NCBI RefSeq assembly: GCF_903853455.1
Contig: NZ_CAINTR010000131.1
Span: 1 to 40,595, forward strand
Length of the DNA: 40,595 bases
DNA from: an uncultured Magnetospirillum sp.
GTDB taxonomy: Bacteria > Pseudomonadota > Alphaproteobacteria > Rhodospirillales > Magnetospirillaceae
Reading direction: 5' to 3'
Below the pieces are notes generated by a model, which had not been told where the DNA came from, searched no databases, and was given only the letters and a program-made list of their open reading frames with translations. Shown here piece by piece: positions 20,558 through 38,010 of this stretch; the first letter of the stretch is position 1, and every line of letters starts with the position of its first letter. A program made the translations under genes and the position numbers.

Positions 20558-23500
20558 ATGGGTGGTCTTCAGCCTGACTACACGTACATGCCATCAGATG
20601 GAGGCCTTAGCGTCGGATTGGCAAAGGCGTGGCCCCTGCGACGCCTGCATGAGTGCTTCGAGACGCTGGCCGACCACCAGCCGACGGCTCCCGCCATCCT
20701 TACCGACCACGGCACCGTCGGTTATGCCGAACTGGACGCCCGGGCCAACGCCCTCGCCCACGCCCTGCTGGCTCGTGGCGTGATCCCGGAGGAGGCGGTG
20801 GGGGTGCTGGCCGAGCGATCAGCGGATCTGCCCGTGGCCTTCCTGGCCATCCTCAAGGCCGGCGCCGCCTATGTGCCCATGGTCGCCGATCTGCCGGCCC
20901 AGCGTCTGGCCGACATGGCCGAGCAGTCTCGCATGCGGCTCCTGATCGCCCTGGACGGGATCGCGCCCCCCGCCGCGTTGCTGGAGACCCTGTCCACCAA
21001 TGCCCCCGCCGGCAAGGAAGGCGCCGTCCTGCGGCCCGAAAACCTGGACCCGGCCGCCATGGCACTGTCGGGAAAACGGCCGGCCCTGCCCGGTTCCGTC
21101 ACCGACCTGGCGGCCATCTTGTTCACTTCCGGCTCCACGGGGCACCCCAAGGGCGTGCTGCTTCAGCACGATGCAGCTCTCAACATGGGGCTCGGGCACA
21201 GGGATGCCCACGGCATCGTCCCGGCCGACCGGCTGCTGCTGTCGGCCTCGCCCGGCTTCATCCTCGGCTTCCGCGAATTGTGCCTGCCGCTGCTGTCCGG
21301 CGCCGCCTTCGTTCCGGTCAGCCGCGCCGTGCTGGACGACCCCGTCCAGGTGCTCGCCACCATGTCCCGCCACCGGGTCAGCGTCGCCCTGTTCACGCCG
21401 TCCTATCTGCGGCTGCTGCACCGGGCAGTGCCCACCGGCCTGCGCTGCCTGCTGACCGCCGGCGAGCGCCCCATCGCCGAGGACGCCCGGCACTATGCCC
21501 GCCATGTGGAATACTGGAACATTCACGGCGCGACCGAGATGTGCGGAGCCATCTGCATGCATCGGGTGGAGCCCGACGGCGACGGTCCGCTGCCCAGCGG
21601 CCGCCCCTTCGTCAACACCGAGGTGCGCCTGCTGGATGCCCAGGGCCGCGAGGTGGCGCCGGGCGAGATCGGAGAGATCCACGTGCTGGGACGCGGCCTG
21701 GCGCGCGGCTATCTTCGCCAGCCGGAGCTGACCGCCGCCAGCTTCGTCGAGACGGATTTCGGGCGGGCCTACCGCTCCCACGACCTGGGACGCTGGACGG
21801 CGGGCGGCCTGCTGGAAACCATCGGCCGCGCCGACGACGTGGTCAAGGTCTCCGGGCAATCGGTCTCGCTGAGCGAGATCGAGCGCAGCTTGCTGCGGCA
21901 CGACGCCATCAGCCACGCCGCGGCGATCCAGCATGAAGGCCGCCTGATCGCCTTCGTGGAGACCGCCGCCGCCCCGGCCGAGGACTGGCGCGACGTCCTG
22001 GCCCGGACCCTGCCCAGCTACATGCTGCCCGCCCAGGTGGCGGCGCTGCCCCGCATGCCGGTCAATTCGTCCGGCAAGGTGGATCGCCGGGCGCTGCGGC
22101 TTCTGGCCGAGCAGGCTCTCGACGCCCGCCACGGCGCCGATGGCGGCACCCCGCCCCAGGGCGAGGAGGAGGAGCGGGTCGCCAGGGTGTGGCAAGACAT
22201 CCTGAAGATCCCCGCCATCATGCGCACCGACAACTTCTTCGCGGTTGGCGGCACCAGCCTGCTGGCCATCGCGGTCAGCCAGCGCCTGACCCGTGAGTTG
22301 GGCCTGACGGTGCCGACGCGCGAGATCTTCGCCGCTCCGGTCCTGGCCGATCTGGCCGGGCGCGTCGCCGTCCTGCGGGACCGGGATTCCGGCGTGCCCC
22401 TGCCCGAAAGCGACGTCGCCACCGAAGGCGAGCGGGAGTTCTGGGTGGCCGAGACCGCCGGCCTCGACACCCAACCCTTCACCATCGCCCTGCACCGGGT
22501 GGTTCGGGGCGGGATGCCGCCCCTGGATCGCTGGGCGGCGGCCTGGGCCGCCCTGGTGGAGCGTCACCCGGCGCTGCGGACCCATTTCGAGGAGGACGCG
22601 GCCGGAACCCTGCGACGGAAGACCGCTCCCAACCTCGTCCTCGGCCCGCGGGGCGGCCTCGACGTCGCCGAGCTGCCCGACCGGGCCGCCGCCCTGGCCG
22701 CCATCCGCGATCATCAGGCCCGGCCATTCTCCATGGCGCGGCCGCCCTTGTGGCGGGCCGGGCTGGTCACGGTCACGGACAGCGGCGAGCACCTGTTCTG
22801 GCTGGCCCTACACCACTCGGTGGGCGACCGCCAGTCGGTGGGCGTCATCGTCGAGGAGATGGAAGCCCTGCTGCGCCAAGACGAGCTTCCCCCGCCCTCC
22901 ACCGGCTTCGGCGAGGCGGCGGCGCGGGAGGAAGCCTACCTCGCCAGCCCCGACTACGCCGAGGACGCCCGCTTCTGGCGAGACACCCTGGCCGGATTGC
23001 CGGACCGGGCCTATGACGACTGGCCCCTCGACCTGCCGCGCTCCGCCACCGCCGCCCCCAGCTGCCACCGCCTCCAGATCCGGCTGGACCCCGCCGTCGC
23101 CACGGGATTGAAAGCCCTGGCCCGGCGGCACGCCGCCGGCCTGCACGCGGTCCTGCTGGCCCTGCTGGCCCATGAGGTGCGGCGGCGTACCGGCCGCGAG
23201 GACTTCGTCGTCGGCACCACCGCCTCGGCCCGCGAGACGGCGGCGGAAGGCCGCGCCATCGGCTATGGCGTCAATATGCTGCCGCTGCCGTGCCGGCCAC
23301 GGCCCACCCCGTTCGGCCCCCGGCTGCGGGAGGCCCAGGAGGTGCTGGGCCAAGGCCTGCTCCATGCCCGCTATCCTTTCGCCCATATGTACCACCCGTT
23401 CTGGGAGGCCCATCCCGGCCGGCACCATCCGGCCCGCTATCCCATCTTCGATCTGGTCATCACCGAAAATCCAGAGATCCGCCAGACTCATCCCCTGGCC

Positions 23501-36846: not shown

Positions 36847-38010
36847 ATGTGGAGATTGCTTCGATGGGTGGGCGCGGCCGGCCTGCTGGCCCTGCTCCTC
36901 GCCCCCCAGTGGCGGTCCCTCGAGCAAATGGGAGAGACACGGACCGAAACCCTCGACCACGCCGGGCGGGACGTCCTGGTGGGTGTCAGTTGGCCGTTCG
37001 CGGCCAACCGGGACGGCATGGCCGAGGGGCTTGACCTCGCCCTGACCGAGGTCAACGCCGGGAGGTCGGCCGGCAGTCCGCCCATTCGCCTGATCCTGCG
37101 CGACGACGGCGACGACTGGGACGCTGCGCGCGCCATCGCCCTGGATTTCGCCGCCACCCCCGGCATGAGCGCCGTTCTCGGCTATCACGACGACGCGGTG
37201 GCCAGCCGGGCCTCCGCCATCTATGAGCAGAGCCGGCTGCTGCATCTTGTCCTCGGCGCCACCGGCACCGCCATCACCTCCCACGACTACCGCTACGTGG
37301 TGCGCACCCTGCCGCCCGCCGACCGGGTCGCCGCCGCCCTGGCTCATACGCCGGCCGCCGCGCGCGGCCGGCGCAACGTCGCCATCGTCTGGGAGGAAGC
37401 CCCCTTCGCCAAGGCTCAGTCCCATCACTACCGCATCGCCCTGGACGCCCTGGGCGGACAGGTCGTCTACCAATGGGCCTATTCCCGCGAGCATGTGGAT
37501 TTCCGCGAACCGGTCAACGTGATGCGGGCCCTGGACGTGGACACGATCTTCTTCGCCGGGTCGGACATCCAGGCCGGCGACTTTCTGCGCATGGCCCGCA
37601 AGGCCGGTCTGACGGCCCCCGTCCTGGGAGCCTTCGGCGACACGCCGGAGCTGCGGCGGCGGGCCGGACCGGCGCTGGAGGGAGCCGTCACGGCGGATTT
37701 CTACGACCCGGCCTCGCCCCACCCGGAAAACCGGGACTTCGTGCGAAAATTCCGGGAGCGCTACGCCAGGGAGCCCGACACCTGGGCGGCGCAGGGGTAT
37801 GACGCCTTGCATCTCCTGGCCCGGGCCATCCGCTCCACCGGCTCGTCCAACCCCCTCGACCTGGCCCTCGCCATCCGCTACATGCCGGCCTGGGAGGGGG
37901 CCGGTGGCCGCTACAAATTCGACCGCCGGGGCGAGTTGGACGCCAGACCGCCCGTCATCCGAATCTTCCGGGACGGCGAGGCGGTCGCCGTGGACGACAC
38001 CCCGCCATGA
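36847..38010 (+). CDS. orphan type 1 periplasmic-binding protein (Leu/Ile/Val-like)
   Basis: A 387-residue protein with an N-terminal hydrophobic segment (LLRWVGAAGLLALLLAP) that lacks a clear cleavage site, so it may stay membrane anchored. The body is a branched-chain amino-acid-type binding protein (Peripl_BP_6): DVLVGVSWPFAANRDGMAEGLDLALTEVN at the start, then a middle domain with SAVLGYHDDAVASRASAIYEQ. The C-terminal pattern is EPDTWAAQGYDALHLLARAI. No permease or ATPase gene for uptake is nearby. In this operon it may sense or bind the peptide, a precursor or a target ligand. It is the last gene of the NRPS operon, and a strong hairpin follows 12 bases after the stop. Confidence 0.85.
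   Translation: MWRLLRWVGAAGLLALLLAPQWRSLEQMGETRTETLDHAGRDVLVGVSWPFAANRDGMAEGLDLALTEVNAGRSAGSPPIRLILRDDGDDWDAARAIALDFAATPGMSAVLGYHDDAVASRASAIYEQSRLLHLVLGATGTAITSHDYRYVVRTLPPADRVAAALAHTPAAARGRRNVAIVWEEAPFAKAQSHHYRIALDALGGQVVYQWAYSREHVDFREPVNVMRALDVDTIFFAGSDIQAGDFLRMARKAGLTAPVLGAFGDTPELRRRAGPALEGAVTADFYDPASPHPENRDFVRKFRERYAREPDTWAAQGYDALHLLARAIRSTGSSNPLDLALAIRYMPAWEGAGGRYKFDRRGELDARPPVIRIFRDGEAVAVDDTPP

What the first reader, a model, noticed from the sequence alone, without database searches (positions are those of the whole stretch)
20558..38010. Four-module reductase-ending NRPS operon with exporter, dioxygenase, SPFH and binding protein
The domain order A-T-(C-A-T)x3-R is read directly. It predicts release of a peptide aldehyde or alcohol, and the genes behind it are coupled by overlaps (ATGA at 33187 and 35976) or gaps of no more than 45 bases. 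Peptide aldehydes with Arg or aromatic ends are classic protease inhibitors, so this could be a new inhibitor or signal in an organism group not known for such products. No reference cluster can be named from sequence alone.
Basis: partly seen in the sequence, partly recalled or inferred. Interest (0 to 1): 0.8.

Follow-up and report, generated by a model that had tools for sequence, protein, structure and literature searches.

The report
Peptide-aldehyde synthetase with prohibitin-like partner
This bacterium carries a gene assembly line that probably makes a small capped peptide ending in an aldehyde, next to an exporter and a prohibitin-like membrane protein that recurs beside other such assembly lines, which hints at an overlooked part of how bacteria ship out these compounds.

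Summary
One intact NRPS gene (A-T-(C-A-T)x3-R) is followed by TauD dioxygenase, cyclic-peptide ABC exporter, SPFH protein and binding protein genes, tightly spaced. It belongs to an NRPS family that I also found in Telmatospirillum, two genomes of the window's genus, Azospirillum plasmids and two MAGs labelled Acidobacterium and Chlorobiaceae. The usual order is cap-Leu-Arg-Tyr(like)-reductase; this copy lacks the Leu module and has a duplicated last module (cap-Arg-aromatic-Tyr(like)-reductase). The Arg code resembles that of the sesbanimide SbnQ A domain. A1 lacks Asp235, so the cap is probably not an alpha-amino acid. Best reading: a capped peptide aldehyde, likely a protease inhibitor.

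The less ordinary part is the prohibitin-like SPFH protein. In 25 of 25 neighbourhoods examined in relatives, its homologues have an exporter, binding-protein or DUF697 gene within 10 kb, against 0 of 10 control Band_7 loci; it also follows sesbanimide-type clusters. One NRPS/PKS cluster with a prohibitin gene is in print; I found no description of the recurring module.

Caveats: product, cap and SPFH role are inferred. Upstream PPTase and DUF697 genes are truncated and the first C domain reads HHSVGDR, so this copy may be impaired.

The parts
20549..33190 (+). NRPS gene, A-T-C-A-T-C-A-T-C-A-T-R; likely start ATG 20558
20669..21958 (+). A1 loading adenylation domain, pocket code ILRLLAIGAK; Ile where alpha-amino-acid domains have Asp235
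22394..23788 (+). first condensation domain; motif HHSVGDR instead of HHxxxDG
23849..25288 (+). A2, code DVSDVGAITK (Arg-like)
25589..26938 (+). second condensation domain, HHSVGDG
27053..28471 (+). A3, code DAFTTVGVVK; duplicate of A4 (76% identical)
28775..30073 (+). third condensation domain, HHSVGDG; duplicate of the second (70%)
30212..31630 (+). A4, code DASTMVGAAK (Tyr-like)
32054..33187 (+). terminal reductase domain (NAD_binding_4; GATGYLGS, YIRTK)
33187..34212 (+). TauD/TfdA-type Fe(II)/2-oxoglutarate dioxygenase; HTD at 160 and NNHEVLHGR at 302
34258..35979 (+). cyclic peptide export ABC transporter (TIGR01194)
35976..36842 (+). SPFH/Band_7 protein, prohibitin-like, one N-terminal membrane span
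36847..38010 (+). Peripla_BP_6 amino-acid-type binding protein
19699..19970 (+). 5' part of a phosphopantetheinyl transferase gene, truncated (junction placed by inspection)
19973..20267 (-). 5' part of a DUF697 gene, truncated; 49% identical over 86 residues to an intact DUF697 gene upstream of the Telmatospirillum NRPS

Best explanation
The operon makes and exports a short N-capped peptide aldehyde. A1-T1 loads a carboxylic acid without an alpha-amino group as the cap. The next modules add Arg, an aromatic residue and a Tyr-like residue, and the reductase releases the chain as an aldehyde (an alcohol is not excluded). The TauD enzyme probably hydroxylates a building block or the chain. The SyrD/PvdE-type ABC exporter moves the product to the periplasm. 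The SPFH protein, anchored by one span with its body predicted in the periplasm, forms a prohibitin-type ring or cage around or beside the exporter, and the binding protein holds the product there. Shown: domain order, gene set, family membership, module loss and duplication, and recurrence of the SPFH gene with exporter, binding-protein and DUF697 genes. Inferred: substrates, aldehyde, and every functional role of the SPFH protein, binding protein and TauD.
For: NRPS and reductase. Arg: A2 code DVSDVGAITK against DTEDIGAITK of the SbnQ-type A domain; PMC8262917 (section 8 and passages read) reports an L-Arg-predicted terminal module and L-Arg in sesbanimide R. Cap: Ile at position 235 in the A1 domains of the window, Telmatospirillum, A. 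brasilense, G006 and G015. Family. Exporter: TIGR01194 above cut-off. SPFH: phmmer to Prohibitin-2 8rrh, E 4.6e-15; model pLDDT 83.7, best Foldseek match 8rrh_B, E 8.1e-18. Recurrence: 25 of 25 SPFH neighbourhoods in relatives, against 0 of 10 control Band_7 loci. The same NRPS family sits with SPFH genes of two separate tree lineages (window/Telmatospirillum, and A. brasilense).
Against: No product, transcript or assay. Upstream PPTase and DUF697 genes are truncated, and the first C domain reads HHSVGDR where the matching domains of Telmatospirillum, A. brasilense and G006 have DG. G006 carries the NRPS with no exporter, SPFH, TauD, binding-protein or DUF697 match in the 45 kb of contig examined. 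G015 has the NRPS and the ABC-SPFH-binding protein-DUF697 set on different contigs, and G004 has that set without the reductase family. Telmatospirillum lacks TauD and A. brasilense lacks the binding protein. Only 12 of the 25 neighbourhoods show an A, C or KS domain within 10 kb. The SPFH model has low overall TM-scores (about 0.5) to its matches.
Confidence: 0.5

Rival explanations
1. The SPFH protein, binding protein and DUF697 are self-protection, not export: they shield membrane proteases or the envelope from the product, much as HflKC regulates FtsH.
For: SPFH relatives HflK/C sit around the FtsH protease (7wi3, 9cz2); a peptide aldehyde is a protease inhibitor in kind; the module also follows sesbanimide-type clusters without its own ABC gene within 10 kb, e.g. 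L061-L063 and L066-L068.
Against: The module occurs with chemically unlike products (PKS-NRPS as well as R-ended NRPS), so a protease-specific shield does not fit all cases.
Confidence: 0.25
2. The copy in this genome is decaying or silent: the NRPS frame is still open but its local PPTase and DUF697 genes are broken and the first C domain is damaged.
For: Fragments at 19699-20267; no DUF697 match elsewhere in the genome; HHSVGDR.
Against: A 4213-codon open frame with strong GC3 bias; three other PPTase-superfamily genes in the genome, two of them longer than AcpS by inspection; all four carrier motifs and the reductase motifs kept. The junction could also be an assembly error.
Confidence: 0.3
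3. The product is a siderophore or other metallophore: TauD makes a hydroxylated ligand, and a PvdE-like exporter and a binding protein handle it.
For: TIGR01194-type exporter and TauD.
Against: Codes predict Arg and aromatic residues, not the hydroxy-Orn, Asp or Ser typical of siderophores (recalled); no TonB receptor among the window ORFs scanned with Pfam; release by a reductase.
Confidence: 0.07
4. The SPFH gene and its neighbours only hitch-hike with biosynthetic genes in mobile regions.
For: Patchy distribution; G006 has the NRPS without the module nearby; G004 has the module without this NRPS.
Against: 25 of 25 and 32 of 32 neighbourhoods with a partner gene against 0 of 10 control loci; operonic overlap with the exporter in window and Telmatospirillum; two SPFH lineages paired with the same NRPS family.
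Confidence: 0.12

Closest known systems
Small peptide aldehydes of NRPS origin (leupeptin, antipain, chymostatin, MAPI, flavopeptin; named in PMC10548850, passages read)
   Same: Short peptide with Arg and hydrophobic residues; reductive release predicted; N-terminal cap.
   Different: Arg is internal and the aldehyde end is Tyr-like; loading A domain without Asp235; different operon partners. No sequence comparison with those clusters was made.
Sesbanimide clusters (Magnetospirillum, Roseibium aggregatum PHM038)
   Same: Arg-type A domain; SPFH, binding-protein and (in most) DUF697 genes directly behind the last megasynthase gene.
   Different: trans-AT PKS with thioesterase release; SPFH only 43-47% identical; no TIGR01194-type exporter within 10 kb there.
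Thalassobaculum sp. OXR-137 NRPS/PKS cluster (PMC12016528, passages read)
   Same: [quoted passage not shown] the authors suggest that the prohibitin may interact with it.
   Different: 12 NRPS and 3 PKS modules; a single case; the passages seen mention no binding protein or DUF697.
AusA aureusimine synthetase and MxcG myxochelin synthetase (NRPSs ending in R)
   Same: NRPS with terminal reductase.
   Different: 1516.9 against cut-off 2500 and 1290.5 against 2300 bits.
Prohibitin, HflK/C and stomatin cages
   Same: SPFH fold with N-terminal span and long C-terminal helix.
   Different: Encoded next to exporter and NRPS; partner protein unknown; assembly untested.

Membership tests
Reductase-terminated NRPS | A, C, PCP domains in modules and a C-terminal NAD(P)-binding reductase | tested here: met
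Reductase-terminated NRPS | NAD(P)H-dependent release as aldehyde or alcohol | not testable with these tools
   needs enzyme assay or LC-MS
Aureusimine synthetase AusA (NF047350) | score above the equivalog cut-off | tested here: not met
   1516.9 bits against 2500
Myxochelin synthetase MxcG (NF038078) | score above the equivalog cut-off | tested here: not met
   1290.5 bits against 2300
Cyclic peptide export ABC transporter (TIGR01194) | score above the curated cut-off | tested here: met
   346 against 286.2 bits
SPFH/Band_7 (PF01145), prohibitin-like | Pfam match above cut-off and prohibitin-type fold | tested here: met
   105.2 against 23.6 bits; best matches prohibitin
SPFH/Band_7 (PF01145), prohibitin-like | assembles into a membrane-anchored ring or cage | not testable with these tools
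   only a monomer model was made
DUF697 (PF05128), upstream gene | full-length domain above cut-off | tested here: not met
   fragment only, 20.9 against 27.7 bits, 35 of 162 positions
TauD/TfdA dioxygenase (PF02668) | Pfam match above cut-off and HxD...H iron motif | tested here: met
   56.2 against 27 bits; HTD 160, NNHEVLHGR 302
Arg-activating A domain | pocket code of a domain known to give Arg | tested here: inconclusive
   A2 DVSDVGAITK against SbnQ-type DTEDIGAITK: 6 of 9 extracted positions identical; the SbnQ-type genome G041 is unnamed and was equated with MSR-1 by its size (recalled)
Alpha-amino-acid-activating A domain (A1) | Asp at position 235 | tested here: not met
   Ile in window, Telmatospirillum, A. 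brasilense, G006, G015
Sesbanimide-type cluster | trans-AT PKS core genes | tested here: not met
   no KS family among the Pfam matches of the window proteins scanned

The most novel reading that the evidence does not exclude
Many Gram-negative NRPS and PKS clusters share an unrecognised export module: a SyrD/PvdE-type ABC exporter, a prohibitin-type SPFH protein, DUF697 membrane proteins and often an amino-acid-type binding protein. The SPFH protein would form a periplasmic cage around the exporter, a release chamber in which the peptide or polyketide is held, matured or kept from the cell's own proteases.
Probability: 0.3. Interest if true: 0.8.

Novelty: new variant of a known kind. Interest (0 to 1): 0.58.

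Why it matters
Reductase-ended NRPSs are known, so the synthetase alone is a new family of a known kind, though one present on plasmids of Azospirillum brasilense and A. argentinense, relatives of crop inoculants. The repeated pairing of a prohibitin-like protein with exporters of nonribosomal and polyketide products is more unusual. If functional, it gives a bacterial SPFH family a concrete job and a test in tractable strains whose product is already known (sesbanimide R in Magnetospirillum gryphiswaldense).

Tried and rejected
Rejected: that the cluster matches a named NCBIfam synthetase (cut-offs missed). Rejected: that SPFH proteins in general sit beside such genes: 10 control loci holding 17 other Band_7 proteins of 8 genomes gave no ABC, binding-protein, DUF697, C or KS match; two had A-domain-like matches of only 22-24% identity, which the 30% filter removes. 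Three of the ten control stretches were short (L148, L149, L150: 11.7, 4.1 and 13.0 kb). Considered and weakened: that the binding protein goes with Arg-containing products: A. brasilense has the Arg module but no binding-protein gene in the cluster. Considered: a promoter between the operon genes; none found, but the scan covers sigma-70-like sites only. Led nowhere: viral contigs (no relative); Rfam and tRNA scans (nothing); literature on Azospirillum NRPS products (nothing specific in the listings).

Rows dropped before counts: of 27 non-own SPFH matches, the two weakest (E 4.4e-6 and 2.2e-4) were not fetched. I sorted them into 48 Bacteroidota and 32 others by record title. At least five loci of the 32 come from genomes also in the 25 (equal contig lengths: L057/G035, L066/G044, L067/G050, L072/G051, L074/G033), so the two sets are not independent. 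One search looked for C domains only in 13 genomes already known to have the SPFH type; it had no control genomes and is not used as evidence.
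Full report
What is there. The window is the whole of contig C131 of a 5.18 Mb draft genome in 223 contigs. At 20549-33190 (+) lies one open frame of 4213 codons with four A, three C and four carrier domains and a terminal reductase. Five genes run on the same strand: NRPS, TauD, ABC exporter, SPFH and binding protein, with overlaps of 4 bases at 33187 and 35976 and gaps of 45 and 4 bases. These are the only condensation domains found in this genome (three matches, all in the window). The left flank holds flagellar genes (flgA-, flgG/F- and fliM-like); other left-flank genes were named only by inspection.

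The family. Close homologues of the reductase (E <= 1e-50) occur in 4 of 99 relatives including the window's own genome (own, G035, G015, G006), in 1 of 398 Pseudomonadota genomes drawn evenly (own only), and in 7 of 72,556 plasmid records, all Azospirillum (4 A. brasilense, 2 A. argentinense, 1 Azospirillum sp.; 68-69% identity). Two further members are MAG contigs labelled Acidobacterium (L069) and Chlorobiaceae (L060); MAG labels can be wrong, but the Chlorobiaceae contig is 284 kb long.

Module order. Pocket residues were read from alignments. Telmatospirillum, A. brasilense and G006 show A1 (Ile at 235) - DAWFLGA.. (Leu-like) - DVSDVGAI.. (Arg-like) - DASTMVGAAK (Tyr-like) - reductase. 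G015 shows the same four codes, in pieces: its NRPS frame is interrupted and split between two contigs. The Acidobacterium MAG shows Leu-like, Arg-like, DAATLAGVAK, reductase, with no A1 in its frame. The Chlorobiaceae locus shows A1 (59% by tblastn), Leu-like and Arg-like, then leaves the stretch held. The window is different: A1 - Arg-like - DAFTTVGVVK - DASTMVGAAK - reductase. Its A3 and A4 are 76% identical, the C domains before them 70%, and both A domains are closest to the family's fourth module (60-66%), while its A2 is closest to the family's third module (64-69%). So this copy lost the Leu module and duplicated the last one. Leu and Tyr names rest on codes that I recall. The Arg call rests on comparison with the SbnQ-type A domain, DTEDIGAITK in G041 and DTEDIGAVTK in Roseibium aggregatum PHM038. 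PMC8262917 (section 8 and passages read) reports that the terminal module of SbnQ in M. gryphiswaldense is predicted to add L-Arg and that sesbanimide R contains L-Arg, while PHM037 and PHM038 products lack it. G041 is unnamed; I equate it with M. gryphiswaldense MSR-1 from its single 4,365,796-base contig (recalled size).

Cap. HMMER aligns the A1 stretch FILGFREL with FDGSALDI of linear gramicidin synthase, placing Ile where Asp235 binds the alpha-amino group. The same Ile is found in five genomes (window, Telmatospirillum, A. brasilense, G006, G015), and A1 is as well conserved as the other domains (65-68% to those relatives), so it is probably active on a carboxylic acid without an alpha-amino group. 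Its identity is open.

The SPFH protein. It matches prohibitins best by sequence (8rrh, E 4.6e-15) and by fold (model pLDDT 83.7, pTM 0.56; 8rrh_B E 8.1e-18, TM about 0.54). One hydrophobic span lies at residues 23-41 behind a basic N-terminus, so the body is probably periplasmic, as in HflK/C (inference).

Recurrence. I fetched neighbourhoods of 25 of the 27 non-own SPFH matches. Within 10 kb, 25 of 25 have an ABC exporter, Peripla_BP_6 or DUF697 match (15, 10 and 20 respectively), and 12 of 25 have an A, C or KS domain; some neighbourhoods are cut by contig ends. In eight genomes I also took the 10 loci holding the other 17 Band_7 proteins: 0 of 10 have any of these. Of the 80 best loci in named genomes, 32 lie in records outside Bacteroidota and 32 of 32 have a partner gene (ABC 15, binding protein 26, DUF697 22; A/C/KS 18), while 0 of 48 Bacteroidota loci have one. 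Five genomes at least are in both sets. In Magnetospirillum, Roseibium, Labrenzia and Stappia the SPFH gene follows a megasynthase ending in C-A-T-thioesterase; two of these, L066 and L068, were scanned and carry trans-AT-PKS-like KS domains. L068 is strain PHM038, named in PMC8262917 as carrying a sesbanimide cluster. Its main text has no 'SPFH', 'prohibitin' or 'band 7' and describes ORFs around the cluster as transport-associated, regulatory or hypothetical; its supplements were not read.

Tree. In a 33-row SPFH tree the window falls with Telmatospirillum, G004 and the MAGs labelled Acidobacteriaceae and Chlorobiaceae in a five-row group (100/100), apart from the sesbanimide-type group (seven rows, 100/100) that includes Magnetospirillum sulfuroxidans of the same family. 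So SPFH follows cluster type more than host. A. brasilense, which has the same NRPS family, carries an SPFH of another lineage, with G006:C21 (100/97). Two SPFH lineages beside one NRPS family argue for a working link.

Results against. G006 has the NRPS with no partner match in contig positions 8000-53380. G015 has NRPS and module on different contigs. G004 has ABC, SPFH, binding protein and DUF697 but no reductase-family NRPS. TauD (58% to the A. brasilense TauD) is missing in Telmatospirillum. So the association is frequent, not obligatory.

State of this copy. Upstream, a PPTase 5' fragment (19.2 bits, cut-off 27) and a DUF697 5' fragment (20.9 bits, cut-off 27.7) meet tail to tail near 19970. 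Telmatospirillum has two intact DUF697 genes upstream of its NRPS. No DUF697 match was found in the window's genome. This looks like a deletion, or an assembly error. Three other PPTase-superfamily genes are present. The first C domain has HHSVGDR, where the matching domains of Telmatospirillum, A. brasilense and G006 keep DG.

Literature. No paper in the library held 'SPFH', 'nonribosomal peptide synthetase' and 'ABC transporter' together. PMC12016528 (passages read) reports one Thalassobaculum NRPS/PKS cluster beside a cyclic peptide exporter and a prohibitin family gene, and suggests an interaction. PMC13086221 (passages read) treats SPFH proteins of P. aeruginosa and stresses NfeD operons and lack of conserved context. 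Searches listed no paper on DUF697 in such clusters, but their lists were capped. The library holds open-licence papers only.

Verdict. A real operon and a new NRPS family, in a copy with rearranged modules. The peptide-aldehyde reading is likely but unproved. The recurring SPFH-exporter-DUF697-binding protein association is the part worth testing.

Noticed in passing
window 19699-20267: Truncated PPTase (+) and truncated DUF697 (-) genes meet tail to tail near 19970; deletion or misassembly.
   Followed up: partly
L159 7459-16919, L160 1-2964 (G015): The G015 NRPS of the same family is interrupted: two frames overlap at 12579-12786 of L159, and the last module lies at the start of another contig.
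   Followed up: partly
L156 5083-17757 (G006:C10): A 4224-codon NRPS of the family stands without exporter, SPFH, TauD, binding-protein or DUF697 matches in the contig stretch examined.
   Followed up: yes
L028 17693-17890 and L043-L046, L048, L049, L051: A small hypothetical protein (65 aa in A. brasilense) recurs between DUF697 and SPFH genes (tblastn); no Pfam match.
   Followed up: partly
L029 1393-1932 (+) and 2353-2904 (-): Telmatospirillum has two different DUF697 genes upstream of its NRPS.
   Followed up: partly
L092: Azospirillum agricola has a sesbanimide-group SPFH with binding protein, ABC and DUF697 but no A, C or KS match within 10 kb.
   Followed up: no
L075-L136 (48 Bacteroidota loci): SPFH homologues of 36-46% identity stand without any of the partner genes; their role is open.
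   Followed up: no
13 SPFH-bearing genomes: All 13 also have condensation domains, some in very large clusters (e.g. G042:C282); no control genomes were scanned.
   Followed up: no
window 10856-14248: A 1130-aa ORF with weak AMIN-like and TPR matches beside flagellar genes.
   Followed up: no
window 39224-40426 (-) and 38688-39110 (-): Right flank: PilZ-domain and DUF6481 genes on the opposite strand.
   Followed up: partly
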